Shown here piece after piece: positions 268 through 11,540 of a DNA stretch of 11,540 bases. Position 1 is the stretch's first letter. Each line of letters begins with the position of its first letter. The translations under genes and the position numbers were made by a program. Source of the stretch: Rhodospirillales bacterium (lineage in GTDB: Bacteria; Pseudomonadota; Alphaproteobacteria; Acetobacterales; Acetobacteraceae); NCBI GenBank assembly GCA_025352915.1, contig JANXSA010000025.1, positions 1 to 11,540 of the forward strand, given 5' to 3'. Under the pieces are notes generated by a model. It was not told the origin of the DNA. It ran no database searches and saw only the letters and a program-made list of their open reading frames with translations.

Positions 268-1050
268 ATGGCCAACTTTACCCTGCCGCCCAACAGCCGC
301 GTCCAGCCTGGCACCACCCACAAGGCGCCCGCCGGCGCCAAGAACGTGCGCTCGTTCAAGATCTATCGCTGGAACGCCGATGACGGGAAGAACCCGCACA
401 CGGATACCTACGATATCGACCTCGACGCCTGCGGCCCCATGGTCCTGGACGCATTGATCAAAATCAAGAACGAGGTCGACCCCACCCTGACCTTCCGCCG
501 CTCCTGCCGCGAGGGCATCTGCGGCTCCTGCGCGATGAACATCGATGGCACCAACACGCTCGCCTGCCTCAAGCCGATCGAAGACTGCGCCGGCGACGTG
601 AAGATCAACCCGCTGCCGCATATGCCGGTGGTCAAGGACCTCGTCCCCGACCTGTCCCTGGCCTACGCTCAGCTGCGTTCGATCGAGCCGTGGCTAAAAT
701 CCGACACCCCCGCCCCGCCCGATGGCGAGCGCCGGCAATCCAAGGAAGAACGCGCCAAGCTGGACGGCATGTGGGAGTGCATCCTGTGCTTCTGCTGCTC
801 CACGGCCTGCCCGAGTTACTGGTGGAACGGCGACCGCTTCCTCGGCCCGGCCGTGCTGCTGGCCGCCTATCGCTGGATTGCCGACAGCCGCGACGAGGCA
901 ACCGGGGCGCGGCTGGATGCGTTGCAAGACCCGTTCAAATTGTACCGCTGCCATACCATCATGAACTGCACCCAAAGCTGCCCCAAGGGCCTGAACCCCG
1001 CCAAGGCGATTGGCGAGATCAAGGCGTTGATGGTGGCGCGGGAAGGGTAG
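268..1050 (+). CDS. sdhB: Succinate dehydrogenase iron-sulfur subunit
   Basis: 260 aa, normal length for SdhB, which passes electrons from the SdhA flavin to the membrane quinone site through three Fe-S clusters. The N-terminal ferredoxin domain carries the [2Fe-2S] ligands C80, C85, C88 and C100 (CREGICGSC and a later Cys). The C-terminal domain carries C171, C174, C177 and C238 for [4Fe-4S] and C181, C228 and C234 for [3Fe-4S]. The spacing 228-234-238 equals that of E. coli SdhB (206-212-216). The conserved CPSYWW after the second motif is also present. The start ATG is preceded by GAAGG. It lies 12 bases after sdhA, and the membrane subunits sdhC/D, usually upstream, are outside the window. 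The stop lies 4 bases before the first hairpin of the repeat element that follows, which could mark the 3' end of the sdh transcript. Confidence 0.97.
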
Positions 1051-1052
1051 GA

Positions 1053-1206
1053 GTCTTCTTTTTGTGAACAAAAAGAAGCAAAAAAACTTCATCCGTTGGC
1101 GCGCGGCAATCGCTGTGGCTCTCCGGATCGACGGCATGGGCGTCGAGGCGTTTCGACTGGCCAATGGACAAAGTTTTTTTGCTTCTTTTTGTCCACAAAA
1201 AGAAGT
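1053..1206. repeat. Paired-palindrome element, copy 1 (A-A' type)
   Basis: Two AT-rich perfect hairpins in inverted orientation enclose a GC-rich spacer. The left hairpin is 1055-1078 (half-arm CTTCTTTTTGT, 11-bp stem, 2-nt centre) and the right is 1182-1205 (same half-arm, centre CC). Inside them CAAAAAAACTTCATCC (1079-1094) pairs with GGACAAAGTTTTTTTG (1166-1181), 14 of 16 positions. The right outer edge continues as GTCTTCCTTT, the complement of the AAAGGAAG edge seen left of copies 2 and 4. This copy has the longest spacer (about 70 bp) and two arms of the same type. It fills the gap between sdhB, whose stop is 4 nt away, and the phosphatase gene, whose ATG is 13 nt past the right hairpin. 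Confidence 0.85.
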
Positions 1207-1218
1207 CTTCCTTTGACC

Positions 1219-1866
1219 ATGCGCTTCGACTCCCGCCCCGCCGCGGCCTGGGTCAATTCGCTCTTCGTCGATCATGCTGTGCTCCGCATCGCATGGACGA
1301 ATTTCGCCGAGGTGATCCCCGGCCGCTGGTACCGCGCCAACCACCCGACGCCCGCCCGAATTGCGCGGCTGGCGGCGCGGCATGGCATTCGCACGATCCT
1401 GAACCTGCGCGGCGCGCGCGAATGCGGCTCCGACGCCTTATCGCGCGATGCGGCGGCAAGGCTGGGGCTGGACCACATCTACATGGCGTTCGAGAGCCGG
1501 GGTGCGCCGCACCGGGAGCGGATCCTGCGGTTTCATGAGATATGGCGACAGGTGAAGACGCCGGTGCTGATGCACTGCAAGTCCGGCGCCGACCGGGCGG
1601 GACTGGCATCCGGCCTGGTGCGGCTGTTCGAGGGCGGCACGGCGGCGCAGGCAATGGCGCAATTGTCGCTGCGGTTCGGGCATTTCCGGCGCTCCGGCTC
1701 GGGGATACTCGACGCGTTCTTCCTGCGCTACCAGGCCGAGGGCGAGGGGCGGGTGGCGTTCCTCGATTGGGTGAAGCTCGAATACGACGAGGACGCGCTG
1801 CGGCGGGATTTTCGCGCCAGCGGGATATCGAGCTTCCTCAACGACCAGTTGCTGCGGCGGGAATAG
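1219..1866 (+). CDS. Dual-specificity / tyrosine phosphatase-like protein (HCX5R)
   Basis: 215 aa from the ATG at 1219. The signature HCKSGADRAG (119-128) is the P-loop of cysteine-dependent phosphatases: C120 nucleophile and R126, spaced C-X5-R. The N-terminal half has the pattern of small bacterial DSP-type phosphatases (EVIPGRWYRANHPTP near 31-45, then IRTILNLRG near 57-65). The expected reaction is hydrolysis of a phosphoester; the substrate, protein or otherwise, cannot be read from the sequence. There is no signal peptide, so it is probably cytoplasmic. An upstream TTG at 1096 in the same frame would add 41 residues, but these are encoded by the repeat element (KFFCFFL-type peptide), so I reject that start. 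No strong Shine-Dalgarno is visible before ATG 1219. Its last 29 bases overlap the 3' end of the oppositely oriented glycosyltransferase gene. Confidence 0.85.
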   Translation: MRFDSRPAAAWVNSLFVDHAVLRIAWTNFAEVIPGRWYRANHPTPARIARLAARHGIRTILNLRGARECGSDALSRDAAARLGLDHIYMAFESRGAPHRERILRFHEIWRQVKTPVLMHCKSGADRAGLASGLVRLFEGGTAAQAMAQLSLRFGHFRRSGSGILDAFFLRYQAEGEGRVAFLDWVKLEYDEDALRRDFRASGISSFLNDQLLRRE

Positions 1867-3253
1867 CGCGCAGCCGATAGGCCGGATTCTCGAACGCAAG
1901 CGGGAATGCGGCAACCAGGGGCGCCATCTCGTCGTCTCGCCGCCACCTCTCCTCGATGACGAAGGCGGGACGGAACCGCGCCAGCGTGTCGCGCAGGCTG
2001 TCGGCGGTAAGGTCCTCGGCCCAACTCACGGCCGGACGACCGGCAAACAGCGCGAAGATCCGCGGATTGCGGGCCAGGAACAGCGTGTCCGGCGGCGTGG
2101 CCTGCATATGCGCGACCAACTCGGTGAATTCCGGGCTGTCGGCGTTGAGCGGTGCCACGGCGCGCGCGTTGTGCTGGGCGTAGAACGTGCCGTAAAGCAC
2201 CGCGAAGACCACCAGCGCGACAGCCGGACCTGACCGGCCAAGCCGGGGTGACGCAAATTCCAGCGCCAGCAGCAACAACAACGGCAGGACCGGCAGCGCA
2301 TAGCGCGTCGGCTCCATATGCACGGGATAGGCAATCAGCGCGGCGACATAGAGAACGACAAACAGCGCAACCGCATCGGGGCCGCGACGAATTCGCGCCG
2401 CCAGCCCGGCGGCGATCAGCACGATGCCTGCCATCAACACGGGGAAATTGGCCATCCGCCCAAAACTGAGACCGAACAGCTCGACCAGTGCCAAGGCATA
2501 GGCCAGCCCAGCATCGATGAAATGCCGCACCAGCCCGGCCGCGGTCATCCGCTCGAAGTAGCCGGCATAGGTGGCGTTATCGACGCGCAGCCACAGCATG
2601 CCAACCAGCGCCACCGCCGTGCCCGCAACCAGCGCCGGCAAGAGCCTCCGCCGCACCGGGGCGGGCCGGAACACCAGGTCGAGCGCGATCGCCGCGGCCA
2701 GCACGATGCCGATCGAGCGGGTCAGGATCGCCATGGCAACGCCGATTGCCAAAAGGGCCGGCCGCCCACGAGCCCCGACCAACGCCAGCATGCACCAGGC
2801 GGCAAACGGTAAATCCGACCCGATGGCATCGCGCCGCATCAGGATGGCGGGTGACAGTCCGGCGGCGAGCACCAGCACTGCACACCAGCGCGGGCCAAGC
2901 GTCGGCAGCGCCAGCCGGTGCAGCCCCCACAGCATCGCCAGCAGCGACGCCAACATCACCACTCGAACGGCGCTGAGGTCGATGCCAAACACCGCGACCA
3001 GCGGCGCCAGCAGCAGCGGCAACCCTGGCGGATAGGCCGCCGGCGACATGATGGCGTTCGCCGGGTTGAACACGAAACCCGTGGCGCCATAAGGCTGAAG
3101 CGTCGCAATCGCCTTGGCATGGGCCAGATAGAGCGCGAAATCGCCGCCGCCCATCACGGAATAACCCGGCCGGAACAGCACCAGGTAAAGTGCGGCCAGC
3201 ACCGCCAACGCAGCCGCGGCCCAGGCGTTCTCGCGCCCGGCCTCAGCGTCCAT
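1838..3253 (-). CDS. Polytopic membrane glycosyltransferase, GT-C / PMT-ArnT-like
   Basis: 471 aa, mostly hydrophobic, with many membrane spans. The family resemblance is to GT-C enzymes that use polyprenyl-phosphate sugars. After the first span (about 11-28) the periplasmic loop has GGGDFALYL (35-43), where D38 fits the catalytic acidic residue. PPGLPLLLAPL follows (75-85), then a SDLPF motif (146-150), and RYALPVLPLLLLL in the C-terminal half. A soluble tail of about 100 residues follows the last span. The acceptor is unknown; glycosylation of LPS, lipid or protein is possible, and the nearby lipid-A-type genes make an envelope target an inference only. The start overlaps the MFS gene's 3' end by 11 bases, suggesting translational coupling. 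The stop lies inside the 3' end of the converging phosphatase gene. Confidence 0.75.
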   Translation of the reverse strand: MDAEAGRENAWAAAALAVLAALYLVLFRPGYSVMGGGDFALYLAHAKAIATLQPYGATGFVFNPANAIMSPAAYPPGLPLLLAPLVAVFGIDLSAVRVVMLASLLAMLWGLHRLALPTLGPRWCAVLVLAAGLSPAILMRRDAIGSDLPFAAWCMLALVGARGRPALLAIGVAMAILTRSIGIVLAAAIALDLVFRPAPVRRRLLPALVAGTAVALVGMLWLRVDNATYAGYFERMTAAGLVRHFIDAGLAYALALVELFGLSFGRMANFPVLMAGIVLIAAGLAARIRRGPDAVALFVVLYVAALIAYPVHMEPTRYALPVLPLLLLLALEFASPRLGRSGPAVALVVFAVLYGTFYAQHNARAVAPLNADSPEFTELVAHMQATPPDTLFLARNPRIFALFAGRPAVSWAEDLTADSLRDTLARFRPAFVIEERWRRDDEMAPLVAAFPLAFENPAYRLRAIPAAATGR

Positions 3254-4759: not shown

Positions 4760-5632
4760 TTAGCGCCAGCGCCGGTGGAACCATAGCCACTGGCCCGGCT
4801 CCTCGCGCACCCAGTCTTCCACCACGCCATTGATCATCTGCGTCGCCGCCACCACGTCGACCAGTCCCTCGGCATCACGCGGCAAGTCGAGCGGACCAGT
4901 GGCGGAGATATGAAACCGCAACCCCGGCCGGCGGATCACCCGCACCCCATAGACCGGGCAGTCATAGCGCCGCGCCAGCCGCGCCAAGGTCGGGTTGCCC
5001 TTCGCCGGACGGCCGAAAAACGAAATATCCGCCCCCCGGCCAAAGAACTGGTCCACCAGCATGCCCAGATGCTCGCCGCGCTCCAGCGCCGCCGCCATCT
5101 CGAACGCCCCGGCCCGCCTTGTGCTGATCAACCGCCCCATCAGCGGCCCGCGGATCGACACGATCTGCGCCGCCACCACCCGGTTGTTCGGCATCCGATA
5201 CACCACCGCCGTCGGCAGCCCATGGCGCTGCGCCGCCACCGCCGGCAGCTCCCAGTTCCCCAGATGCGCGGTAAACAACAGCGCCGGCTTGCCGTCCTCG
5301 CGCAGCAGCTCCAGCACCTCCCGCGAATCCGTGGTCACCCGCCCGGCCTCCGGATGGTCCGGATCGTAGTCCCAGATGCGATCGAGATGGACATACTCGC
5401 CGGCAACCCGGCCCAGATTCTCCCAGGCATCGCGCAACGTCGCCTCAACCCAGGCGGCATCACGATCCGGAAAACTGGCCGCAAGCTGGCGCCGGCCAAT
5501 GCGATGCTCGGGCAACCACGGACCGATGCGCCTTGCCAGGCCGCCAATCAGATTGGAGGCCCGCTCGGGGTTCATCCGGCGCAGCAACCAGAAGAGGCCG
5601 CCGACAAGGGCGCCGAGGAAGCGGTCTAGCAA
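4760..5632 (-). CDS. LpxL/LpxXL-like lipid A acyltransferase (LABLAT superfamily)
   Basis: 290 aa, a usual length for LpxL/HtrB-type enzymes, which move an acyl chain from acyl-ACP onto lipid A at the inner leaflet of the inner membrane. An N-terminal hydrophobic segment (about 4-20) is the expected anchor. The catalytic HX4E is HLGNWE with H123 and E128. Family blocks follow: VVYRMPNN, the STRRAGAF region, GEHLGMLVDQFFGRG and a C-terminal WLWFHRRWR. The start is TTG at 5632, since no in-frame ATG precedes residue 20, which would cut the anchor off. This TTG abuts the edge of repeat copy 2 and lacks a clear Shine-Dalgarno. The gene follows the MDR dehydrogenase on the same strand, as lpxXL follows adh2XL in rhizobia, so a very-long-chain acyl donor is plausible. 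Its TAA stop coincides with the target duplication of the MITE. Confidence 0.88.
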   Translation of the reverse strand: MLDRFLGALVGGLFWLLRRMNPERASNLIGGLARRIGPWLPEHRIGRRQLAASFPDRDAAWVEATLRDAWENLGRVAGEYVHLDRIWDYDPDHPEAGRVTTDSREVLELLREDGKPALLFTAHLGNWELPAVAAQRHGLPTAVVYRMPNNRVVAAQIVSIRGPLMGRLISTRRAGAFEMAAALERGEHLGMLVDQFFGRGADISFFGRPAKGNPTLARLARRYDCPVYGVRVIRRPGLRFHISATGPLDLPRDAEGLVDVVAATQMINGVVEDWVREEPGQWLWFHRRWR

Positions 5633-5637
5633 GGAAG

Positions 5638-5737
5638 GTCTTCTTTTTCTGTAGAAAAAGAAGCAAAAAGACTTTTATCCATTGGGTCCGTGCCCTTATG
5701 GGTAAAAGTTTTTTGGTTCTTTTTTTCAAAAAAGAAC
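5638..5737. repeat. Paired-palindrome element, copy 2 (A-B type)
   Basis: The A hairpin is 5640-5663 (half-arm CTTCTTTTTCT, 11-bp stem) and the B hairpin is 5716-5737 (half-arm GTTCTTTTTT, 10-bp stem). The inner parts, 5664-5686 and 5693-5715, pair almost throughout (ACTTTTATCCAT against ATGGGTAAAAGT, then GGG against CCC) around a six-base loop. This gives the shortest and best-formed long stem of the four, followed by a T-rich run on both strands. The left edge AAGGAAG (5631-5637) is shared with copy 4 and the right edge GCTTGCCT with copy 3. It lies between the MDR dehydrogenase stop (8 nt away) and the acyltransferase start, both on the minus strand. Confidence 0.85.
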
Positions 5738-5745
5738 ATGCTTGC

Positions 5746-6768
5746 CTACAGACTGACTAAAATCTTGCCGAACACATCCCGATGCTCCAACCGCGAGAGC
5801 CCCTCGGTATAAGTCTCCAGCGTATACTCGGTATCGATCACCGGCCGCACCCCGGCGGCAATGCGCGCCAGCGCCGATTCCATGTTCGCCACCCGGCAGC
5901 CGAACGAGCCGGTAATGCGATATTGCTGCTGGAACAGCTGCATCAGGTTGATGCTGCCGCTCGCCCCCGAGGTGGCGCCGCAGGTCACCAGCCGCCCGCC
6001 CCGCTTCATCGACAGCAGCGAGCCCTGCCAGGTATCGGCCCCGACATGCTCGAACACGACATCGACCCCCTTCTTGCCGGTCAGCTTGCGCACCACCCCC
6101 TCGAACCGGTCTTCGACGTAGTTGATGACGTGATCGGCCCCCAGGGCGCGCGCCTTCTCCGCCTTGGCCTCGGACCCCACCGTGGTGATCACGGTGCAGC
6201 CGAGCGACTTGGCGATGCGGATCGCGATGCTGCCAATGGCCGAGCCGCCGGCATGCACCAGGATCCACTCGCCCGGCTCCAGCTTGGCATTATCGAACAG
6301 CATGTGCTCAACCGTGCCATAGGCCACGGTCACGCAAGCGGCATCCGCGGTCGCAACACCGTCGGGCACCGGCACCAACAACCGCGCGGGATGGTTGGTC
6401 AGCTCCTGCGCAAAGCCATCAATATGAAACCCGCGCACACCCGCGACGTTCTCGCACAGATTATCCCGCCCCTGCTGGCACGCCCGGCACACCCCGCAGG
6501 TGATCGCACCAAACGGCACCACGCGCTGGCCCGGCCGCACATTGGCAACCCCCGGCCCAACCGCCACCACCTCGCCCACCCCCTCGGCGGCCACCGTCAA
6601 CGGCAACTTCCGCTTGGCGAACGCCATGCCGCGAAACCCCCAGACGTCCAGGTGGTTCAGCCCAACCGTCCGCATCCGGATCTGCGCCTCGCCGGCGGCC
6701 GGCGCCGGCGGCGGATCAAGCTCGACCAGCCGAACATCGCGGTCGCCGAAAAGCTGAATGGCTCGCAT
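5746..6768 (-). CDS. MDR-family zinc-binding dehydrogenase, adh2XL-like; candidate enoyl reductase
   Basis: 340 aa from the ATG at 6768. The N-terminal GroES-like domain carries a full structural-zinc lobe: C91, C94, C97 and C105 (C-x2-C-x2-C-x7-C). The catalytic zinc site appears absent: the usual Cys is replaced in GLNHLD (36-41) and the usual GHE is AAE (61-63). That pattern fits quinone or enoyl reductase-like MDR members rather than alcohol dehydrogenases. The nucleotide-binding motif is HAGGSAIGSIAI (172-183), with NAD(P)H as cofactor. Position and strand match adh2XL between fabF1XL and lpxXL in rhizobia. In that setting it could reduce the enoyl intermediate of chain elongation, which is an inference. 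An in-frame ATG 10 codons upstream exists, but AAGGA lies 7 nt before the chosen ATG. The gene starts divergently from the TPR gene and ends 8 nt from repeat copy 2. Confidence 0.85.
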   Translation of the reverse strand: MRAIQLFGDRDVRLVELDPPPAPAAGEAQIRMRTVGLNHLDVWGFRGMAFAKRKLPLTVAAEGVGEVVAVGPGVANVRPGQRVVPFGAITCGVCRACQQGRDNLCENVAGVRGFHIDGFAQELTNHPARLLVPVPDGVATADAACVTVAYGTVEHMLFDNAKLEPGEWILVHAGGSAIGSIAIRIAKSLGCTVITTVGSEAKAEKARALGADHVINYVEDRFEGVVRKLTGKKGVDVVFEHVGADTWQGSLLSMKRGGRLVTCGATSGASGSINLMQLFQQQYRITGSFGCRVANMESALARIAAGVRPVIDTEYTLETYTEGLSRLEHRDVFGKILVSL

Positions 6769-6854
6769 CAACTGGTCCTTGCGCATCGTCGCGCGCACGC
6801 TGTACGCACGCCGCGACCGGAAGGCAACCGCGACAGAAACCCCAGGGGCCCGCC
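6769..6854. promoter_or_regulatory. Divergent intergenic region with a weak candidate promoter
   Basis: These 86 bases separate the start codons of the leftward dehydrogenase and the rightward TPR gene, so both promoters should lie here or inside the neighbouring coding ends. On the minus strand TTGCCT (6827-6822), 17 nt and TACAGC (6804-6799) form a weak sigma-70-like pair leading to the dehydrogenase. No convincing pair is seen for the TPR gene. No clear operator palindrome is visible. Confidence 0.3.
6776..6780 (-). promoter_or_regulatory. Shine-Dalgarno of the MDR dehydrogenase gene
   Basis: AAGGA on the minus strand lies 7 nt before the ATG at 6768. It selects this start (MRAIQLFGD) over the in-frame ATG at 6798, whose extra ten codons would cover the site. 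Confidence 0.6.
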
Positions 6855-8522
6855 ATGGATTATCCGTACGACCTCGGCGCCTTCTCCCGCAGGATCACCA
6901 CCGCCTCCCCCGAGGCCCAACGCTGGTTCGATCGCGGCCTCAACTGGTGCTACGGCTACCACCACGAAGAATCCATCGCCTGCTTCGAAAAGGCGCTAAC
7001 CCACGACCCCGACTGCGCCATGGCCCATTGGGGCATCGCCTATGCCGCCGGCCCCAACTACAACTACCCCTGGGTCCTGCACGACCCCGCAGGCAAGACC
7101 GCCGCCCTCGCCCGCGCCTTTGACGCCTCCCGCGCCGCCCTCGCCCTGGCCGACCGCGTCACCCGCCCGGAACACGCTCTGATCGAAGCCCTGGCCGCCC
7201 GCTATCCGCAACGCGACCCGATCGAGGACCAGCGCCCCTGGGACCGCGCCTTCGCCGCCGCCATGCGTGCCGCGCACCAGGCCCAGACCCGCGACCTCGA
7301 CATCCGCGCCGTCTTCGTCGAAGCCGTGCTGAACTGCACCCCCTGGCAGATGTGGAACGTCAAAACTGGCGAACCCACCCCCGGCGCCAACACGCTCGAA
7401 GTTCGGGAAACCCTGGAATCCGCCTTCCGCACAATCCCCGGCGCCATGGACCACCCGGGCCTACTGCACCTGCACGTCCATCTGATGGAGATGTCACCCA
7501 CCCCGGAAGCCGCCCTGCTCACCGGCGACCGCCTGCGCGAACTCACCCCCGACATGGGCCACCTGGTCCACATGCCCACCCATATCGACATCCAGTGCGG
7601 CCATTACCGCGACACCATGCACTGGAACCAGAAGGCCGTGATCGCCGACCGCAAATACTACGACCGCGCCGGCCCGCTGAATTTCTACTCCGGCTACCGC
7701 ATCCACAACTACCACTTCGCGGCCTATGGCGCGATGTACCTCGGCCAGTTCGCCCCCGCCCTGGCCGCCGTCGACGAGATGCTGACCACCATGCCCGAGT
7801 CCCTCCTGCGCATCCCCTCCCCCCCGATGGCCGATTTCTTCGAAGGCTACATCTCCATCCGCCAGCACGTCCTGGTCCGCTTCGGCAAATGGCACGACAT
7901 CATCGCCCAGCCCCTGCCCGCCGACCCCGCGCTCTACTGCAACACCACCGCCATGATCCACTATGCCAAAGGCGTCGCCCACGCCGCCCTCGGCCAGGTC
8001 CCCGCCGCCGAAGCCGAGCAAACCCTCTTCCGCGAAGCCGCCCAGCACGTGCCCAAATCCCGCTACATGCACAACGTCTGTTGCCAGCAAGCCCTGGCCG
8101 TCGCCGAAGAAATGCTCGAAGGCGAAATCGCCTATCGCCGCGGCGAACACGACCGCGCCTTCGCCCACCTGCGCGCCGCCATCACGCTCGAAGACGACCT
8201 GCCCTACGACGAACCCTGGGGCTGGATGCAACCGGTCCGCCACGCCCTCGGCGCCCTCCTCCTCGAACAAGGCCGCATCGCCGAAGCCGAAGCCACCTAC
8301 CGCGAAGACCTCGGCCTCGCCGGCTCGCTCCCGCGTGCCCAAATCCACCCCGACAATATCTGGGCCCTGCGCGGGCTGCTCGATTGCCTCGCGGCCCGCG
8401 GCGAAACCACCGAATCCACCCTCATCCGCCAACGCCTGACCTACGCCGCGACGCGCGCCGACATCGAAGTATCCGTCTCGTGCTTCTGCGCCACAGCGCG
8501 ACAGGATTCATGCTGTAAGTAA
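6855..8522 (+). CDS. Tetratricopeptide-repeat protein, function unknown
   Basis: 555 aa. TPR-like helix pairs are visible at 23-60 (RWFDRGLNWCYGYHHEESIA, then ALTHDPDCAMAHWGIAYA), around 285-310, 365-395, 418-447 and 461-490, with typical small residues and DP ends. Between them lies a histidine-dense stretch: H200, H205, H207, H209 (HLHVHLME), then H236, H239, H243 (GHLVHMPTHI) and H250. The GHLVHMP block recalls a widespread bacterial TPR family of unknown role, in which I believe it is conserved. It ends in a Cys-rich tail (SCFC, SCCK). There is no signal peptide or membrane span, so it should be cytoplasmic; a binding or scaffold role is likely, but no enzyme activity can be claimed. The start has AGGGG 6 nt upstream. 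It is the only rightward gene inside the leftward lipid block, dividing the SDR from the dehydrogenase. Its stop is 5 nt from repeat copy 3. Confidence 0.85.
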   Translation: MDYPYDLGAFSRRITTASPEAQRWFDRGLNWCYGYHHEESIACFEKALTHDPDCAMAHWGIAYAAGPNYNYPWVLHDPAGKTAALARAFDASRAALALADRVTRPEHALIEALAARYPQRDPIEDQRPWDRAFAAAMRAAHQAQTRDLDIRAVFVEAVLNCTPWQMWNVKTGEPTPGANTLEVRETLESAFRTIPGAMDHPGLLHLHVHLMEMSPTPEAALLTGDRLRELTPDMGHLVHMPTHIDIQCGHYRDTMHWNQKAVIADRKYYDRAGPLNFYSGYRIHNYHFAAYGAMYLGQFAPALAAVDEMLTTMPESLLRIPSPPMADFFEGYISIRQHVLVRFGKWHDIIAQPLPADPALYCNTTAMIHYAKGVAHAALGQVPAAEAEQTLFREAAQHVPKSRYMHNVCCQQALAVAEEMLEGEIAYRRGEHDRAFAHLRAAITLEDDLPYDEPWGWMQPVRHALGALLLEQGRIAEAEATYREDLGLAGSLPRAQIHPDNIWALRGLLDCLAARGETTESTLIRQRLTYAATRADIEVSVSCFCATARQDSCCK

Positions 8523-8525
8523 AAA

Positions 8526-8636
8526 GTCTTCTTTTTGTGAACAAAAAGAAGCAAAAAAACTTCATCCACTTACGCCCGATACCAGCACCCGACCAAATGG
8601 ATAAAAGTTTTTTGGTTCTTTTTTTCAAAAAAGAAC
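8526..8636. repeat. Paired-palindrome element, copy 3 (A-B type)
   Basis: The A hairpin is 8528-8551 and the B hairpin 8615-8636. CAAAAAAACTTCATCC (8552-8567) opposes GGATAAAAGTTTTTTG (8599-8614) around a 31-base spacer that includes ACCAGCACCCG, also present in copy 4. It fills the gap between two converging genes: the TPR stop is 5 nt to the left and the SDR stop 10 nt to the right. The sequence after B, CGCTTGCCTTCAG, matches that after copy 2 and contains the SDR stop codon. Confidence 0.85.
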
Positions 8637-8646
8637 ACGCTTGCCT

Positions 8647-9399
8647 TCAGCTTCTTGGAATCCCCAACGAAGCCGTCAACCCGCCATCCACCGGAATAAC
8701 CGCCCCGGTCACATAGCTCGCCCCCGCCGAAGCCAGGAACGCCACCACAGCGGCGATTTCCCCTGGCCGCGCATACCGCCCCGCCGGCACCCGCCCCTCG
8801 GTCGCCTTCCGGTAATCGGCAAACGCCGCCACCATCCCGGTATCCACGAATCCCGGCGCCACGCAGTTCACGGTAACACCGCGCCGAGCCGTCTCCAGCG
8901 CCAGCGTCTTCACATAGGCCGAAAGCGCCGCCTTGGCCGCGCCATATGCCGCATTGCCCTGGCTCGCCTGCTGCCCCACCACCGAGCCGATGGCGATGAT
9001 CCGCCCCGCCCGTGCCCGCGTCATCGGCCGCACCACCGCTTTGGCCAGCCGGGTGAACGACCAGAAATTCACCTGCATCAACGCCTCGGCGGCATCCTGG
9101 TCCATCATCGCCGCCAGCATGTCGTAGGTCGTGCCGGCCACATGCACCAGCGCCCCCAACGCCGGCGCATCCTCCAGCGCCACGGCAAAGACTTCCACCG
9201 CCGCCCGGTCGGCCAAATCCAACACCTCGGACGCGAACACCCGGCCGGGATACCGCTCGCCCAGCCCCGCCACCTGCGCCGCCGCCGCGGCGGCATCCGA
9301 ACGATAGGTGAACGTCACATCGAACCCGGCCTCGGCCAGCGCCTCCACCGTCGCCGCCCCGATGCCCCGCCCGCCGCCGATCACCAGCGCCGTCGCCAT
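8647..9399 (-). CDS. SDR-family 3-oxoacyl-ACP reductase (FabG-like ketoreductase)
   Basis: 250 aa, classical short-chain dehydrogenase length. The cofactor motif is GGGRGIG (8-14). The NNAG position reads HVAG (86-89), a mild variant. The catalytic tetrad is N111, S139 (IGSVVG), Y152 and K156 (YGAAK). The PG motif (182-183, APGF) and a VDGG near the C-terminus complete the FabG pattern. The expected job is NADPH-dependent reduction of 3-oxoacyl-ACP. Its ATG lies one base after the TGA of the upstream FabF gene (TGA-G-ATG), so the two are translationally coupled and very likely work on the same chain. The rhizobial very-long-chain cluster lacks this gene as far as I recall, so here the block has its own ketoreductase. 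The C-terminal end runs into repeat-related sequence (copy 3). Confidence 0.9.
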   Translation of the reverse strand: MATALVIGGGRGIGAATVEALAEAGFDVTFTYRSDAAAAAAQVAGLGERYPGRVFASEVLDLADRAAVEVFAVALEDAPALGALVHVAGTTYDMLAAMMDQDAAEALMQVNFWSFTRLAKAVVRPMTRARAGRIIAIGSVVGQQASQGNAAYGAAKAALSAYVKTLALETARRGVTVNCVAPGFVDTGMVAAFADYRKATEGRVPAGRYARPGEIAAVVAFLASAGASYVTGAVIPVDGGLTASLGIPRS

Positions 9400-9400
9400 C

Positions 9401-10678
9401 TCAGGCGGGCTCCGCCGTCAACACCAGGCAGACATTCTGCCCGCCAAACCCAAACGAGTTCGAAATCGCACAGCGAACCGTCGCATCCCGCGCCACATTC
9501 GGCACGCAATCCACCGGCAGCGCCGGATCGGGCGTCACGTAATTGATCGTCGGCGGAATCCGCCCATGCCGGATGGTCAACAGCGAGAACACCGCCTCGA
9601 TCGTCCCCGCCGCCGTCAGCGTATGCCCGATCATCGACTTGTTCGACGAAATCGGGATCGACCCCGCCCGCTCGCCAAACACCGTCGAGACCGCCAGCCA
9701 CTCCATCCGCTCATTCTCCGGCGTCGAGGTCCCATGCGCGTTGATGTAGTCCACCGCCTCCGGCCCCACCCCGGCATCCGCCAACGCCGCATGCAAACAC
9801 GCAATCACCGGCTTGCCGTCGGGCGATGACCGCGTGCGATGAAAGGCGTCAGCCTTCTCCCCCGACCCCGCCACCACGCCGAGGATCCGCGCCCCCCGCG
9901 CCAGCGCGTGGTCCATGTTCTCCAGCACCAGCGCCCCGGCCCCCTCGGCCATCACAAACCCGTCGCGGTCCTTGCTGAACGGCCGCGACGCCGCCTCCGG
10001 CACCTCGTTGCGCGTCGACAGCGCCGACAACAGCGAAAACCGAATGACCGATTCCGGGTTCACCGAGGCATCCGTCCCCACCACCAGCGCCGCCTCGGAC
10101 AACCCCGCCCGGATCGACTCGACCGCCAACTGAATGGCCGTCCCGCCCGAGGCGCAAGCCGTCGAGGTCGCAATCGGCGACCCTTTGGTGCCGAACCGCG
10201 AGGCCAGATGCTCCCCCACCGACCCGAACAGAAACCGCCGGTAGGTATCCCGAAACCGCGCCTGATCGGCCACGCCAATCAAATCGGCATACGCCACCTC
10301 ATCATTCTTCCCCGTCGCCGCCGCCAAAGCCTGGCGCTGCGGCCATTCCAGCTCCACCGGCGGCAACGCCATGAACAACGGGCCGGGGAAATCCCCTTTC
10401 GACCCGATACCAGCCTCGCTGATCGCCTCCTCGGCCACCCGATCGGCGAGGCGTTGCGACAGCTCCGGCGCACACAGCGGATCGGCCGGCACAAAATCCA
10501 CCGTGCCGGCAATCGTGGTGCGCATGTGGTCGAGCGGAAACCGGGTGATCCGCTTGATCCCGGAAACCCCGGCAGTGAGCTTGGCCCAATTATCGAGTTG
10601 CCCCTCGCCCAGCGAGGTCAGCACCCCCATCCCGGTGACAACGACAATCGGCCGGCCTTGGGAATCCTTATGCGCCAT
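9401..10678 (-). CDS. fabF: Beta-ketoacyl-ACP synthase II-type, catalytically intact (FabF1XL-like)
   Basis: 425 aa. It condenses acyl-ACP with malonyl-ACP in the cytoplasm. The catalytic set is complete: nucleophile C175 in TSTACASGG, H315 in NAHGTSTP, K347 in SSNKSM and H352 in IGHTLTAAG. The thiolase-fold ending NSFGFGGQN is present. A start at 10744 would add 22 residues (a KFFCFFL-type peptide) encoded by repeat copy 4. The ATG at 10678 has AGGAG 7 nt upstream and an N-terminus (MAHKDSQGRPIVVVTGMG) that fits the family, so I use it. The gene lies downstream of a degenerate FabF-like gene, with repeat copy 4 between, and is coupled to the SDR ketoreductase. Gene order matches fabF2XL-fabF1XL of rhizobia, suggesting elongation of a special long acyl chain rather than housekeeping synthesis. 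Confidence 0.93.
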   Translation of the reverse strand: MAHKDSQGRPIVVVTGMGVLTSLGEGQLDNWAKLTAGVSGIKRITRFPLDHMRTTIAGTVDFVPADPLCAPELSQRLADRVAEEAISEAGIGSKGDFPGPLFMALPPVELEWPQRQALAAATGKNDEVAYADLIGVADQARFRDTYRRFLFGSVGEHLASRFGTKGSPIATSTACASGGTAIQLAVESIRAGLSEAALVVGTDASVNPESVIRFSLLSALSTRNEVPEAASRPFSKDRDGFVMAEGAGALVLENMDHALARGARILGVVAGSGEKADAFHRTRSSPDGKPVIACLHAALADAGVGPEAVDYINAHGTSTPENERMEWLAVSTVFGERAGSIPISSNKSMIGHTLTAAGTIEAVFSLLTIRHGRIPPTINYVTPDPALPVDCVPNVARDATVRCAISNSFGFGGQNVCLVLTAEPA

Positions 10679-10685
10679 GGCGATG

Positions 10686-10690
10686 CTCCT
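10686..10690 (-). promoter_or_regulatory. Shine-Dalgarno of the FabF gene
   Basis: AGGAG on the minus strand, 7 nt before the ATG at 10678. It argues against the longer frame that begins inside repeat copy 4 at 10744. Confidence 0.65.
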
Positions 10691-10704
10691 GTAGCAAAGG
10701 AAGA

Positions 10705-10821
10705 ATCTTCTTTTTGTGAACAAAAAGAAGCAAAAAAACTTCATCCATTAAGGCCGAGCTTCGATGACCAGCACCCGCCCAATGGATAAAAGTTTTTTGG
10801 TTCTTTTTTTCAAAAAAGAAC
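10705..10821. repeat. Paired-palindrome element, copy 4 (A-B type)
   Basis: The A hairpin is 10707-10730 and the B hairpin 10800-10821. CAAAAAAACTTCATCC (10731-10746) opposes GGATAAAAGTTTTTTG (10784-10799). The spacer shares ACCAGCACCCG with copy 3. The left edge AAAGGAAG (10696-10703) matches copy 2. It separates the degenerate FabF-like gene, whose stop is only 2 nt from hairpin B, from the active FabF gene. Read leftwards, arm A has an ATG in frame with FabF. Confidence 0.85.
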
Positions 10822-10823
10822 AT

Positions 10824-11540
10824 CTAAGCCTGCGCCACCAGCGCCATCCCCTCGCCCCGCCAATGCCCCCACCCAGTCACCAGAACCTGCCGCAACGCCC
10901 CCGCCATCGCCGCTTCCCCAGCCTCCAGCGGCGCGAACAACGCCCCGCGCGCCACGGCATCCGCCGCCAGCGCGATATTGGCAACGAAACTCGGTTCCAT
11001 CGAATGCCCCAGCGCTGTCGCCGTCGCCCGCACCGGCAACCCCAGCGCATCGAGAAAGCCCAGTTCTTCGCCGGTCGGCCCGGCAACTCCGGAAGCACCG
11101 GACAGCACCGCGGCGCCGTGGCGCTCAAGCGGCATCGCCGCCAACTGGCGACCGGCATTGGCGGCAGCCTCGCCGGGCGCGCGCGTGCACCGGTCGCTTT
11201 CCACGGCCGCGATCCGGGCAATCAGCGTCGCCCCCCGCGCTTGCGCATGGGCACGACTTTCGATCACCAGGAAGCAGCCGAGCGAACTGAGCACCATGCC
11301 ACCTTGGCGCGCCCGCACCGGCGCGAAATCGCCGGCCAGCAGCATGTGGCCCATCGCATAATGCATCGGCGTCTCCGGCCGCTGCGCGTTGTGCGAACCG
11401 CCAACCAGGAACAGATCGCCCTGCCCCGCGGCGATCCGCGCAACCGCGGTGCGCACCGCATCCACGCCGGCGGCTTCCTCGCCCATGAAGGTGCGCGACG
11501 AGCCGACCACGCCATGGACGATCGAGATATTGCCGGCCAG
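10824..11540 (-). CDS. FabF-like protein lacking catalytic residues (FabF2XL / chain-length-factor-like), partial
   Basis: The last 238 codons of a protein whose N-terminus is beyond the right edge; the frame is open to base 11540. The thiolase-fold pattern of a ketosynthase is clear (NISIVHG; a GDLFLVGGSHNA strand; a GHSMEPSFVANI block near the C-terminal active site). By eye, counting from the conserved GG pair, the nucleophile Cys position is a Glu (FMGEEAAGVDAV) and no Cys lies nearby. The NAHGTSTP motif is LSGASGVAGPTG without His, and the Lys five before GH is Ala; only the second His (in GHS) is kept. It is therefore unlikely to condense by itself. The neighbouring intact FabF makes a heterodimer, as in KS/chain-length-factor pairs, a reasonable inference. 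The position corresponds to fabF2XL of rhizobia. It ends 2 nt from repeat copy 4. Confidence 0.8.
   Translation of the reverse strand: MAGNISIVHGVVGSSRTFMGEEAAGVDAVRTAVARIAAGQGDLFLVGGSHNAQRPETPMHYAMGHMLLAGDFAPVRARQGGMVLSSLGCFLVIESRAHAQARGATLIARIAAVESDRCTRAPGEAAANAGRQLAAMPLERHGAAVLSGASGVAGPTGEELGFLDALGLPVRATATALGHSMEPSFVANIALAADAVARGALFAPLEAGEAAMAGALRQVLVTGWGHWRGEGMALVAQA

What the first reader, a model, noticed from the sequence alone, without database searches (positions are those of the whole stretch)
4760..11540. Dedicated long-chain acyl synthesis and lipid A acylation block, with an extra ketoreductase
On one strand, in order: FabF-like (partial), FabF, SDR ketoreductase, MDR dehydrogenase, LpxL-like acyltransferase. 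Except for the SDR this is the rhizobial fabF2XL-fabF1XL-adh2XL-lpxXL order, the pathway for the very-long-chain hydroxy fatty acid of lipid A. The window appears to hold a nearly full elongation cycle (condensation, ketoreduction, probable enoyl reduction) plus the transferase. Such a cluster in what looks like an Acetobacteraceae genome, split by a TPR gene and repeats, would be notable.
Basis: partly seen in the sequence, partly recalled or inferred. Interest (0 to 1): 0.72.

Follow-up and report, generated by a model that had tools for sequence, protein, structure and literature searches.

The report
This stretch of an Acetobacteraceae genome carries a set of genes, known from rhizobia, that builds an extra-long fatty acid and attaches it to the outer membrane; it is mostly a known kind, but one of its two 'synthases' has lost its catalytic residues in every relative examined.

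Summary
The window is a whole contig (C297) of a 69%-complete MAG, taken to be Acetobacteraceae. Its right end overlaps contig C172 by exactly 27 bases; the cut FabF continues there in frame, followed by a FabZ and a specialised ACP. The locus is acpXL-fabZXL-fabF2XL-fabF1XL-SDR-[antisense TPR gene]-adh2XL-lpxXL. The host is not surprising: about a third of 299 sampled genomes of the same family hold XL-type genes. The SDR is not unique: it lies between fabF1XL and adh2XL in 20 of 64 loci, and the cluster SDRs form one clade. The TPR gene was seen only in this genus. Beyond the finding: FabF2XL has Glu at the catalytic Cys column in 79 of 79 aligned rows and has lost the first His and the Lys; FabF1XL keeps them (one row of 86 lacks the first His). 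FabF2XL is thus probably a non-condensing, chain-length-factor-like partner. Acetobacteraceae hold two lineages of the operon; the window's groups with Hyphomicrobiales, which suggests transfer. No lipid A chemistry was tested, and the literature search failed except for one paper.

The parts
10824..11540 (-). fabF2XL, C-terminal 238 aa; the N-terminal part is on contig C172 (L089:1-492); pseudo-ketosynthase, Cys replaced by Glu
   Evidence: NF005084 253 bits over profile 153-395; in-frame join over an exact 27-nt overlap; catalytic residues lost
9401..10678 (-). fabF1XL, condensing ketosynthase with intact Cys-His-Lys-His
   Evidence: NF005076 714 bits, cut-off 629; residues; tree
8647..9399 (-). 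cluster SDR, probable 3-ketoacyl-ACP reductase dedicated to the pathway
   Evidence: TIGR01830 199 bits, below its cut-off of 298; cluster SDR clade of 22 rows, SH-aLRT 99
5746..6768 (-). adh2XL-type MDR, probable enoyl-ACP reductase
   Evidence: PF08240/PF00107; structural 4-Cys loop kept and catalytic-zinc His absent in 37 of 37 rows; fold model pLDDT 92.2
4760..5632 (-). lpxXL, lipid A very-long-chain acyltransferase
   Evidence: NF005120 391 bits, cut-off 273; the only PF03279 match in each of five genus genomes searched, this one included
6855..8522 (+). TPR-repeat protein gene, antisense between SDR and MDR; nothing seen ties it to the pathway
   Evidence: TPR_2 E 1.1e-11; same place in L141, L142 and L145, absent in L146; in none of the loci L003-L058 listed
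5634..5751 (.). dispersed composite inverted repeat between adh2XL and lpxXL
8522..8650 (.). dispersed composite inverted repeat between the TPR gene and the SDR
10701..10835 (.). dispersed composite inverted repeat between fabF2XL and fabF1XL

Best explanation
The locus is an Acetobacteraceae version of the rhizobial acpXL-lpxXL system: a dedicated type II fatty acid synthase plus transferase. Inferred mechanism: AcpXL carries the growing acyl chain; FabF1XL condenses it with malonyl units; the SDR reduces the ketone; FabZXL dehydrates; the MDR (adh2XL type) reduces the enoyl bond; and LpxXL places the finished very long chain on lipid A, probably as its only secondary acyl chain. FabF2XL cannot condense as a normal ketosynthase does, because its catalytic Cys, first His and Lys are gone; it most likely pairs with FabF1XL as a chain-length-factor-like subunit that lets the chain grow far beyond C18. 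Shown here: gene content, order, family membership, residue loss, and that no other PF03279 acyltransferase was found in five genus genomes. Inferred: every enzymatic step, the heterodimer and the chain length.
For: Complete gene set across an exact 27-nt contig overlap, contiguous in same-genus loci L141, L142 and L145. NCBIfam XL-type models over cut-off for FabF1 and LpxXL. Co-occurrence in 299 family genomes: FabF2XL with FabF1XL in 91, all three with LpxXL in 86. FabF1XL lies downstream of FabF2XL in 80 of 82 places in the fetched loci; the 2 misses, L144 and L149, are at contig ends. Residues: FabF2XL Glu at the Cys column 79 of 79, first His lost 79 of 79, Lys lost 79 of 79, second His kept 74 of 79; FabF1XL Cys, Lys and second His 86 of 86, first His 85 of 86. 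One PF03279 protein in each of five genus genomes searched, four of them at least 95% complete; LpxC in 8 of 8. The fabF2XL-fabF1XL pair is present twice in L026, L028 and L038. In Bradyrhizobium ORS278 attempts to mutate acpXL, fabZXL, fabF1XL or fabF2XL all failed (PMC5613085), as expected if both subunits are needed.
Confidence: 0.88

Rival explanations
1. FabF2XL is a KSQ-type malonyl-ACP decarboxylase that primes the pathway rather than a chain-length partner.
For: The Cys is replaced by Glu in 79 of 79 rows, and KSQ domains have the related Gln there (recalled).
Against: Decarboxylation by KSQ uses two histidines (recalled); the first is lost in 79 of 79 rows and the Lys too.
Confidence: 0.12
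2. The operon makes a specialised fatty acid for something other than lipid A (for example a hopanoid ester, glycolipid or polyketide), and the acyltransferase is an ordinary LpxL.
For: Five of 98 family genomes with FabF2XL have no LpxXL over cut-off: G002, G019, G057, G074, G088. In G002, G019, G057 and G074 the contig ends at or before the place where it would lie, and in G088 the match is in two pieces, so this is weak.
Against: The acyltransferase scores 391 bits against the XL-type model (cut-off 273), and it is the only PF03279 match in the five genus genomes searched.
Confidence: 0.07
3. FabF2XL is a second, differently built condensing enzyme for later elongation rounds.
For: A relative keeps the ketosynthase fold in prediction, and the second His is kept in 74 of 79 rows; published work calls both genes 'fatty acid elongation proteins' (PMC5613085).
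Against: No Cys at the nucleophile column in 79 of 79 rows; Glu cannot form the acyl thioester (established enzyme chemistry).
Confidence: 0.05
4. The acpXL-fabZ piece on C172 is not next to the window, and the 27-nt overlap is a chance or repeat-driven join.
For: The two pieces are separate contigs of an incomplete MAG.
Against: The join restores one open FabF2 frame of 393 aa, and L003, L141, L142 and L145 hold the same order on one contig.
Confidence: 0.01

Closest known systems
Rhizobial acpXL-fabZXL-fabF2XL-fabF1XL-adh2XL-lpxXL cluster (very-long-chain fatty acid of lipid A)
   Same: All genes, their order and their relatedness; seen contiguous and without SDR in Hyphomicrobiales loci L015, L016, L022 and L029. 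Published core of five genes: acpXL, fabZXL, fabF1XL, fabF2XL, lpxXL (PMC5613085).
   Different: An SDR between fabF1XL and adh2XL, an antisense TPR gene, dispersed repeats in three gaps, and an Acetobacteraceae host.
SDR-bearing Hyphomicrobiales versions (Ancylobacter L009, Rhodoplanes L013, Methylobacterium L018-L021)
   Same: SDR at the same place; the rows put in the tree (L009, L013, L018, L020) fall in one clade with the window's SDR.
   Different: No TPR gene; SDR identity 59-63% for L009 and L013.
Type II ketosynthase/chain-length-factor pairs (6smo, 1tqy)
   Same: An intact ketosynthase beside a Cys-less homologue. The C-terminal part of the window's FabF2 has 6smo_C as its best solved sequence match, but by little (27.9 bits against 27.0 for a FabF); that 6smo_C is the chain-length factor of its pair is recalled.
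   Different: Glu rather than the Gln of the actinorhodin factor (recalled); the substrate would be a fully reduced fatty acid, not a polyketide or polyene; heterodimer not shown.

Membership tests
Rhizobial-type VLCFA lipid A cluster | acpXL (specialised ACP) | tested here: met
   On adjoining contig C172; best solved match 2kw2 'Specialized acyl carrier protein', 142 bits
Rhizobial-type VLCFA lipid A cluster | fabZXL | tested here: met
   C172, next to acpXL; FEGHFPG motif present
Rhizobial-type VLCFA lipid A cluster | fabF1XL and fabF2XL | tested here: met
   NF005076 over cut-off; NF005084 264 and 253 bits on its two contig pieces, full-length same-genus relatives over cut-off; clades
Rhizobial-type VLCFA lipid A cluster | lpxXL | tested here: met
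   NF005120 391 bits, cut-off 273
Rhizobial-type VLCFA lipid A cluster | Lipid A carries a C26 or longer hydroxy fatty acid | not testable with these tools
   Needs lipid A mass spectrometry
Ketosynthase/chain-length-factor pair | Partner subunit lacks the catalytic Cys beside an intact ketosynthase | tested here: met
   79 of 79 FabF2XL rows Glu; 86 of 86 FabF1XL rows Cys; side by side in 80 of 82 places
Ketosynthase/chain-length-factor pair | Obligate heterodimer and control of chain length | not testable with these tools
   Only monomers could be predicted
Ketosynthase/chain-length-factor pair | Structure closer to chain-length factors than to FabF | tested here: inconclusive
KSQ decarboxylase | Gln for Cys with both His kept (recalled) | tested here: not met
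   Glu, and first His lost, in 79 of 79
Housekeeping FabG | Over the TIGR01830 cut-off, and groups with FabG | tested here: not met
   199 bits, cut-off 298; separate clade
Zinc-dependent alcohol dehydrogenase | Catalytic zinc ligands, GHE motif (recalled) | tested here: not met
   No His at that position in 37 of 37 rows; structural Cys loop kept

The most novel reading that the evidence does not exclude
FabF2XL, annotated as a beta-ketoacyl-ACP synthase, is a catalytically dead pseudo-ketosynthase (invariant Glu in place of Cys) that forms a heterodimer with FabF1XL and acts as the molecular ruler for lipid A very-long-chain fatty acids, a fatty-acid counterpart of the polyketide chain-length factor. 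In this Acetobacteraceae lineage the operon, with its own ketoreductase, was acquired from a Hyphomicrobiales-like source and supplies the only secondary acyl chain of lipid A.
Probability: 0.5. Interest if true: 0.6.

Novelty: new member of a known kind. Interest (0 to 1): 0.4.

Why it matters
The one paper read (PMC5613085) discusses very-long-chain lipid A in rhizobia, Brucella and Legionella and ties it to intracellular life. Finding XL-type genes in about a third of 299 sampled genomes of this family, with no other PF03279 acyltransferase in the five genus genomes searched, says the trait is also common outside those groups and could be the main secondary acyl chain here. The consistent loss of catalytic residues in FabF2XL gives a simple, testable account of how chains of C26-C30 are reached, which the annotation 'two ketosynthases' hides.

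Tried and rejected
Reading right of 11540 in the window: impossible, the window is a whole contig; solved by the neighbouring contig. Idea that the SDR is a new addition in this genome: rejected, 20 of 64 loci have it and 22 cluster SDRs form one clade (a quick tree, with a warning about one long outside row, L236). Idea that the TPR gene belongs to the pathway: no support; it is on the other strand, is missing in G297 (L146, by its length the same record as L003), and among the loci listed (L003-L058; L121-L160) was seen only in L141, L142 and L145. Idea that structure would separate FabF from chain-length factors: inconclusive, ties. Acyltransferase tree: the window row sits with the XL rows, but only 3 non-XL rows were available, two on very long branches and one (L174) nested among XL rows, so XL was not one clade there; the scores are better evidence, though not a clean gap (294 bits for a partial XL match, 269.5 for a full-length non-XL one). 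Acetobacteraceae as one clade in the six-protein tree: rejected by AU test, p 1.8e-6 with the unplaced 'Rhodospirillales' row L011 counted outside, p 0.0021 with L011 left out; the second figure is the fairer one. Both used a quick tree search, and several rows have unusual composition. The promoter/terminator scan gave no promoter-like site and 9 terminator-like sites against 7.4 expected; two of the nine are repeat hairpins.

Literature: ten paper runs failed on time, as did paper reading. One guessed PMC number gave the outline of an unrelated paper, not used. PMC5613085 was reached by a recalled number; its outline and abstract, introduction, one results section, discussion and term passages were read. 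So I cannot say whether the FabF2XL residue loss, the SDR-bearing variant or the Acetobacteraceae distribution is already in print.

The 64 loci are those with fabF1XL and adh2XL on one strand within 4 kb. L014, L023, L024, L143, L152 and L155 carry a cluster SDR but are not among the 64, because adh2XL is on the other strand or not found, or the fabF1XL copy is cut; L123 is counted as lacking it although a short SDR-like match lies there. FabF2XL presence in the co-occurrence figures counts 92 genomes over cut-off plus 6 below it with clear matches; the handle lists were typed from the outputs. Loci were chosen by FabF1 or FabF2, so the 80-of-82 figure says nothing of FabF2XL genes lying elsewhere. 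Residue counts used rows with at least 85% query coverage.
Full report
What was checked. The window is the entire contig C297 (11,540 bp) of a 3.84-Mb, 749-contig genome, 69% complete. The closest relative of its FabF among the named genomes is an Acetobacteraceae MAG (L003, 88%), whose contig has the same length as one of a genome of the window's own genus (G297, L146); on that basis the genome and its family group f1 are taken as Acetobacteraceae.

The missing upstream genes. The last 27 bases of the window are identical to the first 27 of contig C172. Across that overlap the partial FabF continues in frame to a 393-aa protein, and is followed upstream by FabZ, an ACP, a hydratase-like gene and an RlmB-like gene (the last two names are my reading of the sequences, not a family call). 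Same-genus genomes hold the same series on one contig, with identities of 82-99% for the pathway proteins and 78-94% for the SDR (L141, L142, L145). The order is acpXL-fabZXL-fabF2XL-fabF1XL-SDR-adh2XL-lpxXL.

Family assignment. LpxXL (391 bits, cut-off 273) and FabF1XL (714, cut-off 629) exceed the NCBIfam models that fit the XL genes; FabF2XL is cut by the contig end but matches its model on both pieces, at 264 and 253 bits. That these three PRK-numbered models are the XL proteins is my reading of them; their titles say only 'lauroyl acyltransferase' and 'beta-ketoacyl-ACP synthase'. It is backed by synteny with Hyphomicrobiales loci and by the published cluster content (PMC5613085). The ACP matches 'Specialized acyl carrier protein' entries (142 and 118 bits) far better than ACPs not so named (51 bits or less).

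Distribution. In 299 genomes drawn from the same family, FabF2XL is over cut-off in 92, FabF1XL matches at E 1e-150 or better in 93, and LpxXL is over cut-off in 98. Counting six further clear but sub-cut-off FabF2XL matches, FabF2XL and FabF1XL co-occur in 91 genomes and all three in 86. The exceptions were FabF2XL without FabF1XL in 7, FabF1XL without FabF2XL in 2, and FabF2XL without LpxXL in 5. One of the 7, G216, does hold a FabF1 relative at 55% identity, below my threshold; the other six were not looked at. So an Acetobacteraceae host is not in itself surprising. In some genomes the cluster is split between contigs, for example G171, where lpxXL is on another contig.

The acyltransferase. 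Among 13 genomes searched for PF03279, the five of this genus (four at least 95% complete) have one match each, and it is this gene. LpxC is found in 8 of 8 genus genomes, so lipid A is made. The very long chain would then be the only secondary acyl chain added by this enzyme family; other enzyme families were not searched.

The SDR. It lies between fabF1XL and adh2XL in 20 of 64 loci where both were found on one strand. The 22 cluster SDRs tested form one branch (SH-aLRT 99) away from 12 FabG and 15 other SDRs; within it, Acetobacteraceae and Hyphomicrobiales rows separate. It looks like an old accessory part of the system: none of the Roseomonas-type loci in the 64 has it, and none of the Rhizobiaceae/Phyllobacteriaceae-type ones (L022, L027, L029, L032, L041). 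It is most likely a dedicated ketoreductase (inference).

The MDR. It keeps the four-Cys structural zinc loop but has no His at the catalytic-zinc position in any of 37 rows, and it matches acryloyl-CoA reductase and quinone-reductase models as well as alcohol dehydrogenases. Its closest solved match is 2eih, called an alcohol dehydrogenase. An enoyl reductase role is the likeliest reading; it is not shown, and the Bradyrhizobium strains examined lack this gene (PMC5613085).

FabF2XL. In a joint alignment of 79 FabF2XL, 86 FabF1XL and 10 housekeeping FabF rows, the nucleophile column is Glu in 79 of 79 FabF2XL rows and Cys in all others. The first His is lost in 79 of 79 and the Lys in 79 of 79; the second His is kept in 74 of 79. 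FabF1XL keeps Cys, Lys and second His in 86 of 86 and the first His in 85. A separate profile alignment to E. coli FabF puts the same Glu at the Cys. The fold predicted for the L003 relative is an intact ketosynthase (pLDDT 92.9). FabF1XL lies just downstream in 80 of 82 places, the two misses being at contig ends, and the pair occurs twice in L026, L028 and L038; against this, no FabF2XL lies within 10 kb of FabF1XL in four Methylobacterium loci (L018-L021). The best account is a dead partner subunit like a polyketide chain-length factor. The structural comparison does not decide between FabF and chain-length factor.

Origin. In a tree of six concatenated proteins from 47 rows (46 loci and the window), the window's group of Acetobacteraceae falls with Xanthobacteraceae- and Rhodoplanes-like Hyphomicrobiales, and the Roseomonas-type loci form a separate group. 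Holding the Acetobacteraceae together is rejected (p 0.0021 without the unplaced row L011; p 1.8e-6 with it counted outside). This suggests that the operon moved between orders at least once; the direction is not shown.

The insertion and the repeats. The antisense TPR gene sits between SDR and adh2XL in the window, L141, L142 and L145 and is absent from L146. Whether adh2XL-lpxXL then have their own promoter is unknown. The three repeats in the cluster are composite palindromes of 118-135 nt that fold well above shuffled controls (z -4.3 to -5.5). One half of the repeat is found in all nine genus genomes searched (176-346 hits with up to 3 mismatches, reversed control 0) and was not seen in the six loci of other genera scanned.

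Verdict. The system is a known kind in a host family where it proves common. The more interesting point is general to the family of loci and not to this window: FabF2XL appears not to be a condensing enzyme.

Noticed in passing
window 1049-1217, 5634-5751, 8522-8650, 10701-10835: Dispersed composite inverted repeat (two inverted halves, each with an A+T-rich hairpin): 176 hits of one half in this genome and 176-346 in each of nine genus genomes, 0 in reversed controls; not seen in six loci of other genera. Terminator-like or miniature mobile element; carrier unknown.
   Followed up: partly
L026, L028, L038 (Hyphomicrobiaceae-type loci): The fabF2XL-fabF1XL pair is present twice in the same stretch, which may relate to two different very long chains.
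   Followed up: no
L018-L021 (Methylobacterium): fabF1XL-SDR-adh2XL-lpxXL stand without acpXL-fabZXL-fabF2XL within 10 kb; in the genome of L019 a FabF2XL-like match (by its score) lies on another contig.
   Followed up: no
window 1838-3253, minus: 471-aa protein with no NCBIfam or Pfam match; hydrophobic, looks like a membrane glycosyltransferase (my reading). It lies beyond the MFS gene next to lpxXL also in same-genus loci L141 and L145; not detected in L142.
   Followed up: no
L143 (G171, same genus): The cluster is cut after the SDR: adh2XL is not within the fetched stretch and lpxXL is on another contig.
   Followed up: partly
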